Below are positions 39,401 to 47,068 of a stretch of DNA of 64,000 bases, piece after piece (positions within the stretch are counted from its first letter, which is position 1; the number at the start of each line of letters is the position of its first letter). The DNA is from a virus. Made by a program: the position numbers and the translations under genes. The notes below the pieces were generated by a model, which did no database searches, was not told the DNA's origin, and saw only the letters and a program-made list of their open reading frames with translations. The stretch is from positions 62,001 to 126,000 of IMG/VR virus record IMGVR_UViG_3300027782_003601. One strand, given 5' to 3'.

Positions 39401-40962
39401 TAGGTACTTTAGATAAAGATACTGTTGATTTTGATGATGGTGGTGTTGATGTTGGATTTGTTCCATATAATTCAAAAAAAGATAAAATAAAAAGAGGTTA
39501 TGAGCCTGTTAAAACTGAAAAACTAACACAATCTAATTTAGATAGTGTTGAAAAATATGCAGATAGAGAATTAAAACCTGCTGATATAGAGTTTAGTAAT
39601 CATTTTTTTGATAGAGTTAATGATACTCGTAATGGTAAAGAAATATCTGAACCAGAACTAACTGGTTTTTTTAAGAGATTAATACGCCACAAAAAACAAT
39701 TTATAGATTTTTTAGATAAATACAATCAAATCGTAGTTAAAGACGATAGAAGTAATATCAATATTCCATTTGCAAAGATGGCAAATAAAGTTATTGCCAA
39801 AACTATAATGAGAAAAAATGATTTTCAAACCACTTCTCCTACAATCGTAAATGAAGTAGGTGAGGGTTCATCAAAGCCATATTCTTTTACTCAAAAAAGA
39901 AACGAAAAAAATAATAAAATTTACTCATTTACTACCACTTCAAATGAAGATTATAGAGTTGAGTTTGATTATAAAGATAAGTTTGATGCTTGGGAGGTAT
40001 CATTTGCTACATATTTTGATTCAGATGATGCAGTTATAAATAAAGGAGAACTATACTCTGTAATGGCAACTATAACAAATATATCATTAGATTTTATTAA
40101 AAAAGTAAATCCTAAAACAGTATATTTTTCATCTTCAAAAAATTTTGATAATGATAATAGACGTGAAAAACTTTATTTGGCTTATATAAAAAAACAACTC
40201 CCTAATTGGAAATTGGGTAAAAACTCTGGTTTTACTACATTGACTAACCCTAAATATAATAATCAACCAAAGTTTGATTGGTTAAAACAACCAATAAATG
40301 AAATTACACAAGGTTTGTATGCAGGTAAAATTAAAATTGGTGGACAATCAGTTGATATTGAAGTAGAATTATTAGGAGCTGACAATAAAACAAAAGAGTT
40401 TTTAACAAAGATAATTCACATAGATAAAGAATATCAGAACAAATTACCTATTGGTTCTCAATTCAAAATACCAGCAAGAGTATTTAGAATGCCAGGTGGT
40501 GGATGGCACAAAATTAAATCATCCGCATTTAAAGAATCATTAAATGAGGGCGGAGCATATGGACATATGTCTCATCCGTTTGATGATATGAATTTAACTT
40601 TTGGTGATTTAAAAAATATAATCACAAATGCATTAACTGGTAATTTAGAATTGACAAGAGAAAAATGTATAGCTGGTGATACTATAATACATACTGAAAA
40701 AAATGGTGATATGACTATTGCAAAGTTTGTAGATAATAAATTAGTTGATAAAGTATTGTCATTTAATGAAGAAACCAAACAAAATGAATATATGGATGTT
40801 ATGTTATCTTTTAATAATGATATTTCAGATGATTGGTTGGAAATTGAATTAGAGGATGGAAAAACTATACAAGTAACTCCGAATCATAGAATGTATGTAG
40901 AAGGAATTGGATATGTTGAAGCAAAACATTTGACAAAAGATATGGAGTTAAAAATAATCTAA
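36421..40962 (+). CDS. Giant multidomain protein, N-terminal part: nucleotidylyltransferase + HExxH + ligase N-extein + split-intein N half
   Basis: 1513 residues. Residues 10-180 are a cytidylyltransferase/NMN-adenylyltransferase-like domain: VVYSGRFQPFHAGH (His25, Gly27, His28) and ISGTDVRNW near 146-154. A Pro/Gln/Lys linker (about 330-410) and an Ala/His-rich hydrophobic stretch (about 560-620) follow, then AHEMVHRKQDEMG with HExxH at 771-775, typical of zinc peptidases. Residues about 1040-1180 carry the FSNHFFDRVNDTRNGKEI motif common in phage polyproteins. Residues 1380-1415 (YGHMSHPFDDMNLTFGDLKN, then LTREK) are the start of a ligase-like nucleotidyltransferase whose presumed active-site Lys1415 is the last extein residue. 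Residues 1416-1513 are an intein N half. It needs trans-splicing with the product at 41742 to complete the ligase-like domain. Confidence 0.85.
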   Translation: MKLEVDKPEVKKLVVVYSGRFQPFHAGHYVSYLKLCQKFGKDNVYIATSNVTSGPKSPFNFNEKKEIATKMFNVPSDKFIEVKNPYAPKEILQHFDGKTTAYIAAVGEKDESRLTGKYFKPYKGKTGYGYDEIGYTYAVPAESNPISGTDVRNWLGSGDDESKKKRFLKAYPKFNADIFKMITNKLNEDGFPGGIGTGLDLPGGYINGAPTGSTNESNNTHPSSEFRKEPHPTRYETEHPSDEPDWYKTENLYDPIGNVIDRVVAEEIFKEFSKQYFGEAPNPIMDKEFDYTAADGKKKKITVKGALRLPKEHPAHVQASKLVGSDKTSAIAKGPEDAPANEPKKLPQQGKAAKQAAKPAQPGQPVKQGQTQQGKADKATGKSTTSTPQGAEQTPPPQTLSGDELKSSAEKKKDTNKSVFGKWGDRFKQEVKEIGDTIKTFLDEDEAHIAHEGHDPNSPIRKKITEKLTDFVAKMPANVAKHVLKVAKQKVHQLKNTGRGIQSLAVSAMKGEKPKFGMYKNRDGKWQHSENEAKRQKKAFIDTGKDIALTAAAVVTAGAISGAVAGAAHGIGGIAHGAAHGATHTLSHGVSGFLHHMAVDFGKHCFKESVFLATGAGHTQAANLAMGAGLIGENIWKNTINEEDDIKQNTSMYTELLKQTLEKMETFEPNPTQYLEMLKSYAATKQKADLQKLVGPMNEVISPLKRENVNHFVEYATKRLKLKEQPKVTLIEDPEFSKQNHSLGGYNVDSKEIFVATEGRLTADILRTIAHEMVHRKQDEMGLIGDSVKDGADGSPIENKANSIAAILLREYGKLNKTIYNEDINIDVDKGDTVLMGKFKNKKVVAKDFGTDDHGMPTINGKVATTFRIPRGEEKPDSQSVFDEVTTNDWHFKAIMALYDKSNSFGKKKIAAAVCSDPNANRKDIVVQLRDSDYQEVTAITDKLRLSEYIEKKKLNEIEAKTKGLGGTNPNDYETKAEKDFNKHHSIDMYTNSLGTLDKDTVDFDDGGVDVGFVPYNSKKDKIKRGYEPVKTEKLTQSNLDSVEKYADRELKPADIEFSNHFFDRVNDTRNGKEISEPELTGFFKRLIRHKKQFIDFLDKYNQIVVKDDRSNINIPFAKMANKVIAKTIMRKNDFQTTSPTIVNEVGEGSSKPYSFTQKRNEKNNKIYSFTTTSNEDYRVEFDYKDKFDAWEVSFATYFDSDDAVINKGELYSVMATITNISLDFIKKVNPKTVYFSSSKNFDNDNRREKLYLAYIKKQLPNWKLGKNSGFTTLTNPKYNNQPKFDWLKQPINEITQGLYAGKIKIGGQSVDIEVELLGADNKTKEFLTKIIHIDKEYQNKLPIGSQFKIPARVFRMPGGGWHKIKSSAFKESLNEGGAYGHMSHPFDDMNLTFGDLKNIITNALTGNLELTREKCIAGDTIIHTEKNGDMTIAKFVDNKLVDKVLSFNEETKQNEYMDVMLSFNNDISDDWLEIELEDGKTIQVTPNHRMYVEGIGYVEAKHLTKDMELKII
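40666..40959 (+). other. Split intein 1, N-terminal half (IntN)
   Basis: Begins at Cys1416 with block A CIAGDTIIHTEKNGD and contains block B TIQVTPNHRMYVEG (the TxxH motif, His in NHR). The half is 98 residues, ending at a stop codon at 40960-40962, which is the usual split position after block B. The extein residue just before it is Lys1415. Confidence 0.88.
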
Positions 40963-40987
40963 CAACCATCAGTTTTTTCACAAAATT

Positions 40988-40997
40988 TATATTTATA
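40988..40997 (+). promoter_or_regulatory. Putative late promoter of homing endonuclease 1
   Basis: Perfect TATATTTATA, 20 nt before the ATG at 41018, inside the 55-nt gap after IntN. It would give the endonuclease its own late transcript. Confidence 0.65.
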
Positions 40998-41017: not shown

Positions 41018-41752
41018 ATGATTGAAAAGTGTAAATATTGTGAAATAAAAATTAAAATTATTGGAAAAAATAGTATGAATGGACATATAACAAATTGTAA
41101 AAAATATAAAGAATGGAGAGATACTACTTTTAATTATGATTTTTTATATGATGCGTACATAGTAAATGGAAAGTCCGCATTACAAATTGCAAATGAAAAT
41201 GGGTGGAAATCATCTACTATAGTAAATAAACAATTGAATAGATTGGGTATAGCTGTTAGAAATGTTAAACAATCCCACCATATGTATGAGTATAAGTCTA
41301 GAATTGAAAAAACTAATTTTAAAAAATATGGAGCAGTAAATCCATTAAGTAAAGGAACTGTATCATATGAAAAACGAAATAAAACAGTTAAAGAAAAATA
41401 CGGAGTTGATAATGTATTTCAACATATGGATGTTAAAGAAAAAATAAGAAATTCTGGAGCATTCAAATCATTATTTCCAAACTATAATATAAATTCTATA
41501 CGAATTATAGAAGAGTATGGTAAGAAATATGGATATAATTTTCAACATGCCGAAAATGGGGGAGAATATTTTGTAAATGGGCTTGGATATTATTTGGATG
41601 GGTATGATAAAGAAAAAAATGTAGTAATTGAAATAGATGAATCCCATCATTTTAATAAAGATGGTTCACTTAAACAAAAAGATATAATACGTCAACAAAA
41701 AATAGAAGAATTATTACTATGTAAATTTATTAGAATAAAATATGAGAATTAA
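41018..41752 (+). CDS. Homing endonuclease 1 (Vsr/EDxHD-type), inside fractured ligase-like gene
   Basis: 244 residues. N-terminal zinc-finger-like motif (CKYCEIKIK with HITNCKK), then a helix-turn-helix ALQIANENGWKSSTIVNKQL and NUMOD-like segments with KYGAVNPLSKG and EKYGVDNVFQHM that contact DNA. The nuclease core is at about 165-244: RIIEEYGKKYGYNFQHAENG, GYYLDGYDKEKNVVIEIDES then HHFNKDG, consistent with an EDxHD catalytic set (Glu/Asp/His residues in the LDGYD and EIDExHH motifs). Its last 75 residues are clearly homologous to endonuclease 2 at 45154, while the N-termini differ. It is flanked by the two halves of a split intein, with the intein C-half ATG inside its last codons. Confidence 0.82.
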   Translation: MIEKCKYCEIKIKIIGKNSMNGHITNCKKYKEWRDTTFNYDFLYDAYIVNGKSALQIANENGWKSSTIVNKQLNRLGIAVRNVKQSHHMYEYKSRIEKTNFKKYGAVNPLSKGTVSYEKRNKTVKEKYGVDNVFQHMDVKEKIRNSGAFKSLFPNYNINSIRIIEEYGKKYGYNFQHAENGGEYFVNGLGYYLDGYDKEKNVVIEIDESHHFNKDGSLKQKDIIRQQKIEELLLCKFIRIKYEN

Positions 41753-41846
41753 ATCTATAAAAAAAATAAATAAAGAGCAAAACAGATATGATTTAAAAGT
41801 AGATGGGTTTTCATGCTACTATGCAAATGATATATTAGTTCATAAT
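41742..41846 (+). other. Split intein 1, C-terminal half (IntC)
   Basis: 35 residues from MRIKSIKKINKEQNRYDL to DILVHN, with block F (NRYDLKVDG) and block G (ANDILVHN, terminal Asn35 preceded by His34). The next residue Thr36 is the +1 nucleophile. The ATG overlaps the endonuclease 1 stop by 11 nt. Confidence 0.88.
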
Positions 41847-42887
41847 ACGGATGGGCAAGCTCTTGCAATTAGTTGGAAAAATGGTAGATTAATTGCAGCA
41901 AGAAACAAATCACATTTACAAAATGCAGGAGTAGGTGCTATGGGTATTGAAGATGTTGCATCAAAGTTTGCAGGTAGAGGTGGATTAACTGATGCTTACA
42001 ACTTTGCAATGAAAGATTTATCAGCAGCAATTCAATCTCTTTCAGAACCACAGAGAAAAAAAATATTTAACGAAGGACAGTGTTTTATGAATTTAGAGGT
42101 TATATGGCCTACATCGGTAAATGTAATACCTTATGGACAACCACTATTAGTATTTCACAATACAACTTGTTATGATGAGAAAGGTGTAGCAATCGGAGCA
42201 AATCAAGGAGCAGCAACAATGTTGGCAGGAATGATTAAACAAGTAAATGGAGATGTTCAATCTAAATATACAATTCAAGGACCTCCTGTAACAAAATTAC
42301 CAAATAATGAAGAATTGAGTTCTAAGCAAAGTAAATATTTAACACAACTACAAAAATTACAATTTCAATTTCAATTAAGTAATAAAGATGGTGTAGCAGA
42401 TTATCATCGTGCTTGGTGGGCAAACTTCATAGATAAGAGTAAAGTTAAGTTACAAAAATTAGAAAGAGATGCTTTAATTAACAGATGGGCATTTGGTGAT
42501 AAATCATTGCGTTTAAATACTATTACTGATAAAGATGCTCAAAAATGGGCAATGGATAATGATAAAGTAAATGTGGCAAACCAACAAAAAGAAAATATCA
42601 GACCATTTGAGGAAATATTTTTAGGAGTTGGAGCAGATGTTTTATCATTTATGGATTCAGTATTAACTGTAAATCCAAATGCAGCAGTTGCTAATATGAA
42701 ACAAAGATTAAAAGATACTGCTGATAAGGTAAGAGGTAGTGGAGATGTATCTAAAATAGAAAAATTAAAGAAAGAATTAGCAAGATTACAATCAATTGGT
42801 GGATTGGATAAGATAGTTCCAAATGAGGGTATTGTATTTATTTATAAAGGAAACACTTATAAACTTACAGGAACTTTTGCACCTTAA
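41742..42887 (+). CDS. Ligase-like protein, C-terminal part preceded by split-intein C half
   Basis: 381 residues. Residues 1-35 are the intein C half (see separate entry), Thr36 is the +1 residue. The extein begins TDGQALAISWKNGRLIAARN; joined to the LTREK end of the 36421 product it forms EKTDGQ, the KxDG motif I of ATP-dependent ligases and related nucleotidyltransferases. Downstream are an IEDVASKFAGRGGL segment, the FMNLEVIWPTSVNVIPYGQP motif (III-like), and NEGIVFIYKGNTYKLTGTF at the end (motifs IV/V, EGIVF and YKLTG). It is therefore a ligase-like adenylyl-transfer domain whose activity depends on splicing. RNA or DNA ligase specificity cannot be told from sequence. Confidence 0.85.
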   Translation: MRIKSIKKINKEQNRYDLKVDGFSCYYANDILVHNTDGQALAISWKNGRLIAARNKSHLQNAGVGAMGIEDVASKFAGRGGLTDAYNFAMKDLSAAIQSLSEPQRKKIFNEGQCFMNLEVIWPTSVNVIPYGQPLLVFHNTTCYDEKGVAIGANQGAATMLAGMIKQVNGDVQSKYTIQGPPVTKLPNNEELSSKQSKYLTQLQKLQFQFQLSNKDGVADYHRAWWANFIDKSKVKLQKLERDALINRWAFGDKSLRLNTITDKDAQKWAMDNDKVNVANQQKENIRPFEEIFLGVGADVLSFMDSVLTVNPNAAVANMKQRLKDTADKVRGSGDVSKIEKLKKELARLQSIGGLDKIVPNEGIVFIYKGNTYKLTGTFAP

Positions 42888-44260: not shown

Positions 44261-45115
44261 ATGGCAGTTCAAGGGCAACCTAAAAAATCTCTTAAAGAGA
44301 TAATTGCAGAAGAATATCGTAAATGTGGATTAGACCCAATTTACTTTATGAAAAAATATTGTGTTATCCAACACCCAACAAGAGGTAAAATACCTTTCCA
44401 CCTATATCCGTTTCAGGAAAATTGTTTAACAGACTTTAAAGAAAATCGTTTCAACATTATTCTTAAATCCCGTCAATTGGGTTTATCAACCCTTTCTGCG
44501 GGTTTTATTTTGTGGAAAATGTTGTTTAACGAAGATTTCAATGCATTGGTTATTGCAACTAAAGTAACAGTAGCAAAAAACTTAGTAGAGAAAGTAAGAG
44601 TAATGCACGATTTACTACCCGTATGGTTAAGAGATGGTGGGAACTCTTCGGTTGAAGATAACAAACTATCACTTAAACTAAAGAACGGTTCTCAGGTTAA
44701 AGCAATTGCATCCTCACCCGATGCAGGACGTTCGGAAGCCCTATCCCTATTAGTAGTGGATGAGGCAGCATTCATTAGAGATATTGATGAAATTTGGTTA
44801 TCCGCACAATCAACTCTATCAACGGGTGGTAGTGCAATTGTATTATCAACTCCAAATGGTGTGGGTAACTGGTTTCACAAAATGTGGGTAGAAGGGGAAA
44901 GTGGTGCAAATGGATTTAATCCTATAAATCTCCATTGGACAGTTCATCCAGAAAGAAATCAAAATTGGAGAGATGAACAAACTCGTATTTTGGGAGCAAA
45001 AGGAGCAGCACAAGAATGTGATTGTTTGTGGGGTGAATCCAAAGTTCAAGTTAAAAACCTAGAAACGATGGAAATAGACCATTATACTTTGGAACAATTG
45101 TATGATATTTTATAA
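44261..45115 (+). CDS. terL: Terminase large subunit, N-terminal ATPase part + split-intein N half
   Basis: 284 residues. The packaging ATPase fold is visible: adenine-binding segment HLYPFQENCL (47-56), Walker A-like SRQLGLST (70-77), where the usual Lys is Leu, Walker B LSLLVVDEAAF (Asp167, Glu168), and coupling motif VLSTPNG. It ends GAAQECD at residue 254, and residues 255-284 (CLWGESKVQVKNLETMEIDH and 10 more) are an intein N half of only 30 residues. The C-terminal nuclease half is encoded at 45878-47068, so the full enzyme requires trans-splicing. In T4-like phages gp17 is one chain. The gene begins 1 nt after the previous stop. Confidence 0.92.
   Translation: MAVQGQPKKSLKEIIAEEYRKCGLDPIYFMKKYCVIQHPTRGKIPFHLYPFQENCLTDFKENRFNIILKSRQLGLSTLSAGFILWKMLFNEDFNALVIATKVTVAKNLVEKVRVMHDLLPVWLRDGGNSSVEDNKLSLKLKNGSQVKAIASSPDAGRSEALSLLVVDEAAFIRDIDEIWLSAQSTLSTGGSAIVLSTPNGVGNWFHKMWVEGESGANGFNPINLHWTVHPERNQNWRDEQTRILGAKGAAQECDCLWGESKVQVKNLETMEIDHYTLEQLYDIL
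45023..45112 (+). other. Split intein 2, short N-terminal half (IntN)
   Basis: 30 residues from Cys255 with block A CLWGESKVQV; block B is not here but in the C half. This is the atypical early split (N half about 25-35 residues) known from terminase split inteins such as AceL-TerL. Confidence 0.85.
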
Positions 45116-45119
45116 TTTA

Positions 45120-45129
45120 TATATTTATA
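45120..45129 (+). promoter_or_regulatory. Putative late promoter of homing endonuclease 2
   Basis: Perfect TATATTTATA, 24 nt before ATG 45154 (15 nt before an in-frame GTG at 45145). Parallels the box before endonuclease 1. Confidence 0.65.
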
Positions 45130-45153
45130 CGCAAGAATGCGATTGTGGAAAAT

Positions 45154-45888
45154 ATGAACTATGTAACAGAAGGCTGGCAAAAAATAAAAAAATCAATAGA
45201 AATTATTGATAAAATTTATTCATTTGATGAAACTAAAACTTTATTATTAAATGAGTATTATTATGAAAATTATTTTGGAAAAGCTAAAAATAGAACTTTA
45301 ATAAACGATAATCCAAAACTATATAAATCAATATATTATCATAGTAGTATTTTAGAAGATACTATGAAAAATCACAACAGATATAAGGGATGGTATAATT
45401 TTAAATTTAGATTAAAATTTATAGCTGAAATTGATGGTAATATAAATAAATTAAAATGCAATTGTGGAAAAACATATACATGGAATGTTTATTGTAGAAG
45501 TTGTCCTGAATATCACAAAACTTGGTTAGGTAAGAATCATACCGATGATACTAAAAAACTAATGAGAGTATCCACAATTAAGTATTTAGATAAAACTAAT
45601 GGACAACTAGCACCGAGATATAATATAAATTCAATACCAATAATAGAGGAATACGGAAAAATCAATGGATATAATTTTCAGCATGCAGAAAATGGTGGTG
45701 AATACCATATCAAAGAATTGGGTTATTTTTTAGATGGATATGATGTTGAAAAAAATGTAGTTATTGAAATAGATGAAAGGCATCATTTTGATTCAAATGG
45801 TAAATTGAAAAAAAAAGATATAAAAAGAGAGCAGGAAATAACCAAATTATTAAAATGTGATTTTATACGGATAAAATATGAAAACTGA
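45154..45888 (+). CDS. Homing endonuclease 2 (Vsr/EDxHD-type), inside fractured terminase gene
   Basis: 244 residues from the ATG at 45154 (an upstream GTG at 45145 would add three). The N-terminal half differs from endonuclease 1 and has a Cys4-like finger (CNCGKTYTWNVYCRSC, about 102-117) and a TWLGKNHTDDTKKLM motif. The nuclease core is close to that of endonuclease 1: PIIEEYGKINGYNFQHAENG, GYFLDGYDVEKNVVIEIDER, HHFDSNG, and the same ending FIRIKYEN. The two enzymes have equal length and the same final residues. The ATG of the intein C half lies inside its last codons, giving an 11-nt overlap. Confidence 0.82.
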   Translation: MNYVTEGWQKIKKSIEIIDKIYSFDETKTLLLNEYYYENYFGKAKNRTLINDNPKLYKSIYYHSSILEDTMKNHNRYKGWYNFKFRLKFIAEIDGNINKLKCNCGKTYTWNVYCRSCPEYHKTWLGKNHTDDTKKLMRVSTIKYLDKTNGQLAPRYNINSIPIIEEYGKINGYNFQHAENGGEYHIKELGYFLDGYDVEKNVVIEIDERHHFDSNGKLKKKDIKREQEITKLLKCDFIRIKYEN

Positions 45889-46222
45889 TTATATATTAAA
45901 ACTTAATACTAAATACGAAATAATGACTCCAAATGGTTATAAATCATTTGGTGGTATTCGTAAATTAATAAAAAGTGATTATTATGAAATACACTTATCA
46001 AACGGATATAAATTAAAATGTTCTATAAACCATAAATTTATAAAAGATGGCGTTGAAATAGTAATCAATGATATAAATGTTGGTGATTATATTGATGGTG
46101 ATGATAATAAAAAAGTTGTCATACAAATTAAGGAATATAAAACAAAAGATATTACATTATTTGATATTGTAGAAGTAGATGGTGGTAATATATTTAATGT
46201 TGATGGTGTAGTTTCTCATAAT
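45878..46222 (+). other. Split intein 2, long C-terminal half (IntC)
   Basis: 115 residues containing block B (KCSINHKFIKDG, TxxH-type with His52), a NVGDYI segment and the F/G blocks TLFDIVEVDGGNIFNV and VVSHN (His114, Asn115). Together with the 30-residue N half it makes a 145-residue mini-intein lacking an internal endonuclease. Confidence 0.87.
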
Positions 46223-47068
46223 TGTGATTTTGTTGGTTCTGGAGATACCGTAATAGACCCGGAATTATTAACTTGGTATAAGAACACATATGTAATGGAA
46301 CCTGTTGAAAAAGCAGGGTTTGATAGAAACCTATGGAAATGGGAATATCCAAATTACAACAAACAATATATGGTTATAGCTGACGTTGCAAGAGGAGATG
46401 CAGCCGATTATTCTACTGCACAAGTTTTAGATATTGAAGATTGTTCGCAAGTTGCCGAATATAGAGGAATGATTGATACCAAAGATTTTGGAAACTTTCT
46501 TACTGCATTAGCAACCGAATATAATAATGCACTTTTAGTAGTGGAAAATTCAAACGTAGGTTGGGCATGTATTCAACAAGTAATAGATAGAGGATATCAA
46601 AATTTATTTTATATGAGTAATGATTTAAAATATATTGATGTTGAAAGACAAATGAGTAATAGGTTTTACAGAGATGAAAGGCAAATGGTTGCAGGATTTT
46701 CAACAACAACAAAAACACGTCCTCTTATTATTTCAGCATTAGACACTTATATGAGTGAGAAAGATATTCTTATTCGTAGTGGTAGATTAATAGATGAAAT
46801 GTTTACATTTATTTGGCAAAATGGTAGAGCAGAAGCAATGAAGGGATATAATGATGACTTAATTATGGCATTAGCAATTGGATTATGGGTTCGTAATACT
46901 GCACTTCGTTTAAGACAAGAAGGAATAGATTTAACCAAAAATATGTTAAATTCTGCACACGTTGCTAAATATAGTGGAATGATTACAACAGGTCATTTAA
47001 ATAGTAATCCATATGAAATGGAAGTGGGTAACAAAGAAATAGAAAATTTAACTTGGTTACTTCGTTAA
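45878..47068 (+). CDS. terL: Terminase large subunit, C-terminal nuclease part preceded by split-intein C half
   Basis: 396 residues: residues 1-115 are the intein C half, and Cys116 is the +1 residue. The extein (CDFVGSGDTVIDPELLTWYK onward) is the RNase H-like nuclease of gp17: YMVIADVARGDAADYSTAQV with the catalytic Asp, VVENSNVGWACIQQVID, and KGYNDDLIMALAIGLWV with the conserved DD. The joined protein would read GAAQECD-CDFVGSG at the splice site. Length of the ligated terminase would be about 535 residues (254 + 281), typical for gp17-like enzymes. Confidence 0.92.
   Translation: MKTDYILKLNTKYEIMTPNGYKSFGGIRKLIKSDYYEIHLSNGYKLKCSINHKFIKDGVEIVINDINVGDYIDGDDNKKVVIQIKEYKTKDITLFDIVEVDGGNIFNVDGVVSHNCDFVGSGDTVIDPELLTWYKNTYVMEPVEKAGFDRNLWKWEYPNYNKQYMVIADVARGDAADYSTAQVLDIEDCSQVAEYRGMIDTKDFGNFLTALATEYNNALLVVENSNVGWACIQQVIDRGYQNLFYMSNDLKYIDVERQMSNRFYRDERQMVAGFSTTTKTRPLIISALDTYMSEKDILIRSGRLIDEMFTFIWQNGRAEAMKGYNDDLIMALAIGLWVRNTALRLRQEGIDLTKNMLNSAHVAKYSGMITTGHLNSNPYEMEVGNKEIENLTWLLR

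What the first reader, a model, noticed from the sequence alone, without database searches (positions are those of the whole stretch)
45023..46222. Terminase split by an atypically divided intein (30-residue N half)
The N half contains only block A (CLWGESKVQV, 30 residues); block B (CSINHKF) lies in the 115-residue C half. This early split resembles the AceL-TerL-type split intein from an Antarctic lake phage terminase, and the C half reads alike (TPNGYKSFGGI, SINHKFIKDG, VVSHN followed by Cys). The other split intein in this window is divided in the usual place, so one phage uses two split sites.
Basis: partly seen in the sequence, partly recalled or inferred. Interest (0 to 1): 0.85.

Follow-up and report, generated by a model that had tools for sequence, protein, structure and literature searches.

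The report
Terminase split by early-cut split intein
A phage's DNA-packaging motor gene is broken in two, and its halves are almost certainly rejoined as proteins by a known kind of self-splicing element cut unusually near its front end; a DNA-cutting "homing" gene sits between the halves, and its start region holds a small copy of its own DNA target, possibly an off-switch.

Summary
TerL is split into two genes: 254 aa of extein plus a 30-aa IntN (45023-45112), and a 115-aa IntC (45878-46222) followed by CDFVGSG. By sequence profile and fold, both halves match the two chains of the Cat intein (PDB 6dsl), the consensus of atypically split inteins. At least 145 related phage loci carry the uninterrupted AAQECDCDF-type site. 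The second split intein in the window is divided canonically (98/35 aa), so one phage does use two split sites. The kind is known (AceL-TerL, GOS-TerL, Cat).

(1) A homing-type nuclease gene (45154-45888) lies between the halves, so this is a "fractured gene". (2) About 30 related loci form a decay series: full nuclease, truncated, absent but still split, and three fused (cis) inteins. (3) Both fractured genes carry, beside the nuclease's promoter-like TATTTATA, a conserved short copy of their own insertion site: direct in TerL (45132-45146), inverted in the other gene (40966-40979). This resembles the operator through which phage T4's I-TevI represses itself. I infer nuclease autorepression in split-intein genes. 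Splicing, cleavage and repression are all untested.

The parts
44261..45022 (+). TerL N-extein (ATPase domain), 254 aa, ends ...GAAQECD
   Evidence: phrog_5989 E 4.6e-44, Pfam Terminase_6N; 145 relatives continue uninterrupted from here
45023..45112 (+). IntN, 30 aa, Cys1 / block A only; stop 45113-45115
   Evidence: profile matches CatN 6dsl_A; dN/dS 0.16 against L082
45122..45129 (+). TATTTATA promoter-like motif
   Evidence: motif in 10 of 52 upstream regions against 5 of 915 coding bins, Fisher p 2e-10
45132..45146 (+). direct copy of the insertion-site DNA (CAAGAATGCGATTGT = QECD|C), putative operator
   Evidence: 14/15 match; the 15-mers overlapping the insertion point match best of 1591 TerL 15-mers; 0 of 20000 shuffles; present in 16 of 32 distinct relatives
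45154..45888 (+). homing-type nuclease, 244 aa (alternative GTG start 45145); Vsr/PD-(D/E)XK-like C-terminal domain
   Evidence: dN/dS 0.16
45878..46222 (+). IntC, 115 aa: block B SINH, ends SHN; ATG overlaps the nuclease stop
   Evidence: 6dsl_B CatC E 2e-18; fold 6dsl_B E 1.4e-7
46223..47068 (+). TerL C-extein (nuclease domain), begins Cys+1 CDFVGSG
   Evidence: matches 3c6a, 3ezk and 3cpe (T4-type terminase, gp17); phrog_24361
40666..40959 (+). canonical 98-aa IntN of the second fractured gene (stop 40960-40962)
   Evidence: TIGR01445 intein_Nterm over cut-off
40966..40979 (-). inverted copy of the second gene's insertion site (reverse complement of GAAAAAACTGATGG = EK|TDG)
   Evidence: 13/14 match, 0 of 20000 shuffles; kept in 8 of 8 distinct lineages, varying only at the Thr wobble base
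40990..40997 (+). TATTTATA promoter-like motif before the second nuclease
41018..41752 (+). second nuclease, 73-74% identical to the first over the C-terminal ~93 aa
41742..41846 (+). canonical 35-aa IntC of the second fractured gene, followed by TDGQ
   Evidence: Pfam Intein_splicing 2-35, below cut-off

Best explanation
TerL is a fractured gene. The two precursors (ATPase half ending in a 30-aa IntN; 115-aa IntC leading the nuclease half) are translated separately, the intein fragments associate into a class 1 HINT fold, and Cys1, the block B His, the terminal Asn and Cys+1 carry out protein trans-splicing that restores QECD-CDF and a full TerL. The early split lies where a Vsr-like homing-type nuclease gene sits; that nuclease spreads the element into uninterrupted TerL alleles. 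Shown here: anatomy, homology of both halves to the Cat intein, uninterrupted alleles, selection on each part, a homing-like divergence minimum. Inferred: splicing and nuclease activity. Also inferred, at about 50% and not included in the confidence below: the copy of the insertion site beside the promoter-like motif is an operator by which the nuclease represses its own gene, as I-TevI does in phage T4.
For: Both halves match the two chains of one solved atypically split intein. Exact empty sites in 145 loci, with AAQECDCDFVGSG commonest. The same anatomy (IntN 30-38 aa, nuclease, IntC about 108-117 aa) occurs in about 30 distinct loci. Against L082, dN/dS is 0.16-0.17 for IntN, nuclease and IntC. 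Synonymous divergence falls from 0.71 (N-extein) to 0.40 (IntN) and 0.30 (nuclease), then rises to 0.47 (IntC) and 0.60 (C-extein); bootstrap intervals of nuclease and exteins do not overlap, as expected from recent homing. All combinations of occupied and empty TerL and second-gene sites occur. [quoted passage not shown]
Against: No experiment shows splicing, cleavage, promoter use or repression. The IntN match is weak on its own (single-sequence phmmer finds nothing; profile E 0.018). The nuclease has no Pfam or PHROG hit of note, and its Z-scores to I-Bth0305I (6.9) and Vsr (6.8) are middling. Half of the distinct TerL split loci lack the site copy, mostly those where the nuclease start abuts or overlaps the IntN stop, or where the nuclease is truncated or lost. 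An unguided search for such copies upstream of other family nucleases shows nothing above background.
Confidence: 0.9

Rival explanations
1. TerL is simply broken (a frameshifted or pseudogene cis-intein) and the halves are not spliced.
For: No biochemical proof of splicing here; some relatives do show nuclease decay.
Against: Purifying selection on extein, IntN and IntC (dN/dS 0.03-0.17); the splicing residues are invariant across 12 lineages; only one TerL in the 176-kb record; the split persists in about 30 distinct loci.
Confidence: 0.04
2. The copy of the insertion site beside the nuclease is a recombination footprint (capture of target DNA when the nuclease gene entered), not a functional operator.
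For: The TerL copy contains only the left half plus TGT; it is still present in two loci that lost the nuclease (L239, L272).
Against: It does not track the resident TerL at wobble bases (TerL CAG against copy CAA in 6 of 16 lineages), so it is not freshly copied. A second, unrelated host gene shows the same thing, inverted and spanning the insertion point, with 13 of 14 bases fixed in 8 lineages while the flanks vary. Both lie beside a TATTTATA motif.
Confidence: 0.3
3. The TerL copy is a relic of the CxxC zinc finger that starts the nuclease in some relatives (LKCKLCxYxAKQLFQH), matching QECDC by coincidence.
For: Relatives L163, L166 and L172 have a CxxC finger at this place, and the window reads QECDCGKYELC there in one frame.
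Against: Up to 14-15 of 15 bases identical to the TerL site; the frame relative to the nuclease varies between lineages; it does not explain the inverted copy in the second gene.
Confidence: 0.08

Closest known systems
Cat / AceL-TerL / GOS-TerL atypically split inteins (S2 split, after helix alpha1)
   Same: TerL host by name; IntN of 25-30 aa with block A only; Cys1, SHN and Cys+1; IntC homologous to CatC (40% identity over 115 columns by fold alignment)
   Different: Different sequence; nuclease gene between the halves, decay series and cis relatives described here; whether AceL-TerL itself has such a nuclease could not be checked
Fractured genes (Dassa 2009, cited in PMC13014065) and AceL NrdHF (PMC7891396)
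   Same: Host gene broken by a split intein with a free-standing homing-type nuclease ORF between the halves
   Different: AceL NrdHF is split canonically (98/48 aa) around a GIY-YIG enzyme; here the same nuclease family sits in one atypical and one canonical split in the same phage
T4 I-TevI (and I-TevII, I-TevIII) operator sites (PMC2988022)
   Same: Copy of the homing site beside the endonuclease's promoter inside the mobile element
   Different: Group I introns and GIY-YIG or HNH enzymes there; split inteins and a Vsr-like nuclease here; binding not tested
VidaL and PolB16 OarG (S1 atypical splits)
   Same: Short IntN, naturally split
   Different: Split earlier, after strand beta2 (15-16 aa IntN)

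Membership tests
Class 1 intein (HINT) | Nucleophilic residue 1, block B T/SxxH, terminal (H)N, nucleophilic +1 | tested here: met
   C1; SINH; SHN; C+1; Cys1, the block B His, SHN and C+1 invariant in 12 lineages
Class 1 intein (HINT) | HINT fold | tested here: met
   AlphaFold2 model of IntC (pLDDT 67); the leading PDB matches are inteins and other HINT domains, 6dsl first
Class 1 intein (HINT) | Protein splicing activity | not testable with these tools
   Needs expression
Atypically split TerL inteins (Cat/AceL type) | IntN under 40 aa, split before block B | tested here: met
   30 aa IntN; block B in IntC
Atypically split TerL inteins (Cat/AceL type) | Sequence homology of both halves to Cat | tested here: met
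   IntC E 2e-18; IntN profile best hit CatN at E 0.018, weak
Atypically split TerL inteins (Cat/AceL type) | Same TerL insertion site as AceL-TerL | not tested
   AceL extein sequence not held by any tool
Fractured gene | Split intein halves flanking a free-standing nuclease ORF | tested here: met
   Nuclease ORF 45154-45888 between the halves; repeated in most of about 30 relatives
Vsr-like homing endonucleases (I-Bth0305I type) | Vsr/PD-(D/E)XK catalytic domain | tested here: inconclusive
   3r3p Z 6.9, Vsr 1cw0 Z 6.8, RAP domains Z up to 10.9; no sequence hit
I-TevI-type autorepressed homing endonuclease | Copy of the homing site at the nuclease promoter | tested here: met
   the promoter itself is inferred from motif enrichment
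I-TevI-type autorepressed homing endonuclease | Binding without cleavage, and repression | not testable with these tools
   Needs gel shift, cleavage and reporter assays

The most novel reading that the evidence does not exclude
Fractured split-intein genes in these phages regulate their nuclease through a self-operator: a short, wobble-tolerant copy of the nuclease's own homing site is kept beside the nuclease/IntC promoter. Because IntC is translated just downstream of the nuclease (the ORFs overlap), the nuclease would thereby also control the supply of the C-half of TerL, linking homing to assembly of an essential packaging enzyme.
Probability: 0.45. Interest if true: 0.68.

Novelty: new member of a known kind. 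Interest (0 to 1): 0.5.

Why it matters
Few atypically split inteins have been characterised, and they are valued tools because a short IntN can be made synthetically. This set supplies about 30 natural TerL sequences with IntN of 30-38 aa and, unexpectedly, natural fused (cis) versions. The series from full nuclease to truncated, lost and re-fused makes the evolutionary fate of a fractured gene readable. If the site copies are operators, they give a direct, cheap test of how homing nucleases embedded in essential split genes are kept in check, and the copies could point to nuclease targets in other fractured genes.

Tried and rejected
Single-sequence PDB search with IntN plus flank found no intein; the profile of 12 relatives was needed. 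Pfam, PHROGs, NCBIfam and PDB sequence searches did not name the nuclease. The Dassa 2009 paper, the Cat extein-dependence paper and a split-intein review were not in the held library. PMC6333167 did not discuss TerL inteins. An unguided scan for target-site copies upstream of all family nucleases was underpowered, because 13/15 matches are background in this AT-rich DNA; only the test anchored on the known junction is informative. For the second gene, the junction 15-mers tie for best with a few others, so that case rests on conservation across lineages. A protein-level reading of the QECDC copy was dropped because its frame relative to IntN and the nuclease varies. The spliced product of the second gene matched no family.

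Full report
What is there. On the + strand, ORF 44261-45115 encodes the ATPase half of a T4-type large terminase (phrog_5989 E 4.6e-44) and ends with 30 intein residues after GAAQECD. ORF 45878-47068 starts with 115 intein residues ending VVSHN and goes on as CDFVGSG plus the TerL nuclease half. Between them is a 244-aa ORF (45154-45888; alternative GTG start at 45145) whose stop overlaps the IntC start codon. The finding's coordinates are exact.

It is real and precise. Of the IMG/VR relatives where both flanks could be placed, 145 loci have no insertion at this codon boundary; the window and three independent contigs carry 1200, 872 or 661 bp there. The spliced product AAQECDCDFVGSG equals the commonest uninterrupted form. 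A second record is identical to the window across the insertion and 90 bp on each side, and the virus record (176,192 bases) holds one TerL only. Spliced in silico, the protein matches terminase family phrog_2 over residues 41-485.

The intein halves. IntC finds the engineered consensus intein CatC (6dsl_B) at E 2.3e-18 alone and 2e-23 as a 12-sequence profile. The IntN profile's best PDB hit is CatN (6dsl_A), E 0.018. An AlphaFold2 model of IntC (pLDDT 67) has 6dsl_B as first Foldseek match, E 1.4e-7, ahead of gp41-1 and VidaL. Cys1, the block B His, SHN and Cys+1 are invariant over 12 lineages. According to PMC13014065, atypical splits occur after strand beta2 (VidaL, PolB16) or after helix alpha1 (AceL TerL, GOS TerL), and TerL CAT has a 30-aa IntN. 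The window's intein therefore joins a known class.

Two split sites in one phage. The second intein (40666-40959 and 41742-41846) is divided 98/35, the canonical way. Its nuclease shares 73-74% identity with the first over the last ~93 residues, so one nuclease family sits in both split types. Occupied and empty states of the two sites occur in all four combinations, so they move independently.

The nuclease. No sequence family names it. Its predicted C-terminal domain aligns with I-Bth0305I (Z 6.9), Vsr (Z 6.8) and RAP domains (Z up to 10.9); the RAP-domain protein FASTKD4 is itself called Vsr-like in the literature (PMC11879112 title). Z under 8 can be a common arrangement, so membership of the Vsr-like homing family is likely but inconclusive. 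Against L082, dN/dS is 0.16 for the nuclease, 0.16 for IntN and 0.17 for IntC. Synonymous divergence is lowest in the nuclease (0.30; 0.21-0.39) and highest in the exteins (0.71; 0.62-0.81 and 0.60; 0.51-0.69), the pattern expected from recent horizontal homing.

Decay and re-fusion. About 30 distinct TerL loci share the IntN (30-38 aa) - nuclease - IntC layout or a reduced form of it. Some keep a truncated nuclease (L030, L027). Some have lost it but stay split: L272 beside its full-length sister L279, L246 beside L244, and L247 beside L270, and also L268, L280 and L239. In L246 the two ORFs overlap by about 14 nt. L252, L292 and L305 are single-ORF cis inteins; L252 keeps an internal Met at the place of the IntC start, which suggests re-fusion rather than an ancestral state. 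Tree resolution is modest, so the number of losses is uncertain.

The site copies. Right after the IntN stop, the window has TATTTATA (45122-45129) and then CAAGAATGCGATTGT (45132-45146), a 14/15 copy of the DNA around QECD|C. Among 1591 15-mers of the TerL gene, those overlapping the insertion point match this 41-nt spacer best, and none of 20000 shuffled spacers does as well. The copy is present in 16 of 32 distinct relatives at +5 to +20 after the stop. The others mostly have the nuclease start abutting or overlapping the IntN stop, or have a truncated or lost nuclease. The copy's wobble bases do not follow the resident TerL. Having seen this, I looked for the same in the second gene and found an inverted copy of its site, CCATCAGTTTTTTC = reverse complement of GAAAAAACTGATGG (EK|TDG), between the IntN stop and TATTTATA. 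It is kept in 8 of 8 distinct lineages, varying only at the Thr wobble base, and the commonest empty allele there reads GAAAAAACCGATGG, identical to the copy in most relatives. TATTTATA itself is enriched upstream of genes (10/52 against 5/915; p 2e-10).

Reading. The T4 literature (PMC2988022) describes this arrangement for I-TevI: a sequence like the homing site at the late promoter, bound but cut about 100-fold less well, giving autorepression; [quoted passage not shown] I therefore propose that both nucleases here repress their own promoters. Because IntC is translated downstream in the same unit, this would also affect the C-half of TerL. This is inference; the main rival is a recombination footprint.

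Limits. AceL-TerL itself and several key papers were not available to the tools. The site-copy idea arose from the data; the second gene was a follow-up prediction with orientation left open. The column-by-column conservation table of the TerL copy was made on loci picked with a loose pattern, so its invariant columns are biased; the shuffle test on each locus's own junction is not. No activity of any kind has been shown.

Noticed in passing
window 40966-40979 and 45132-45146: Both fractured genes keep a short copy of their own intein insertion site beside the nuclease's promoter-like motif (inverted in one, direct in the other).
   Followed up: yes
L252 (cis, 143 aa), L292, L305: Natural single-ORF (cis) versions of the TerL intein at or near the same site; L252 keeps an internal Met where IntC normally starts.
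   Followed up: partly
L163/L296, L166/L299, L287: The homologous intein sits two codons earlier (QE|CDTEF type instead of QECD|CDF); the empty site contains a TGTGAT-TGTGAT-like repeat that could allow sliding.
   Followed up: no
window 40651-40665 and 41847-41870: The second split intein interrupts a conserved EK|TDGQ motif that resembles the KxDG active site of nucleotidyltransferases/ligases; the spliced protein matches no Pfam or PHROG family.
   Followed up: partly
window, 52 + strand gene models: TATTTATA is a strongly enriched upstream motif, a candidate late promoter of this phage.
   Followed up: partly
L205-L207, L215, L217 and others: The same nuclease domain occurs free-standing between phage genes and just before the C-part of what looks like a DNA polymerase (YIDTDS), suggesting further gene fractures.
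   Followed up: no
L246 against L244: Loss of the nuclease seems to have gone through a short shared sequence (TTATAATTT) at the IntN end and IntC start, leaving two overlapping ORFs.
   Followed up: partly
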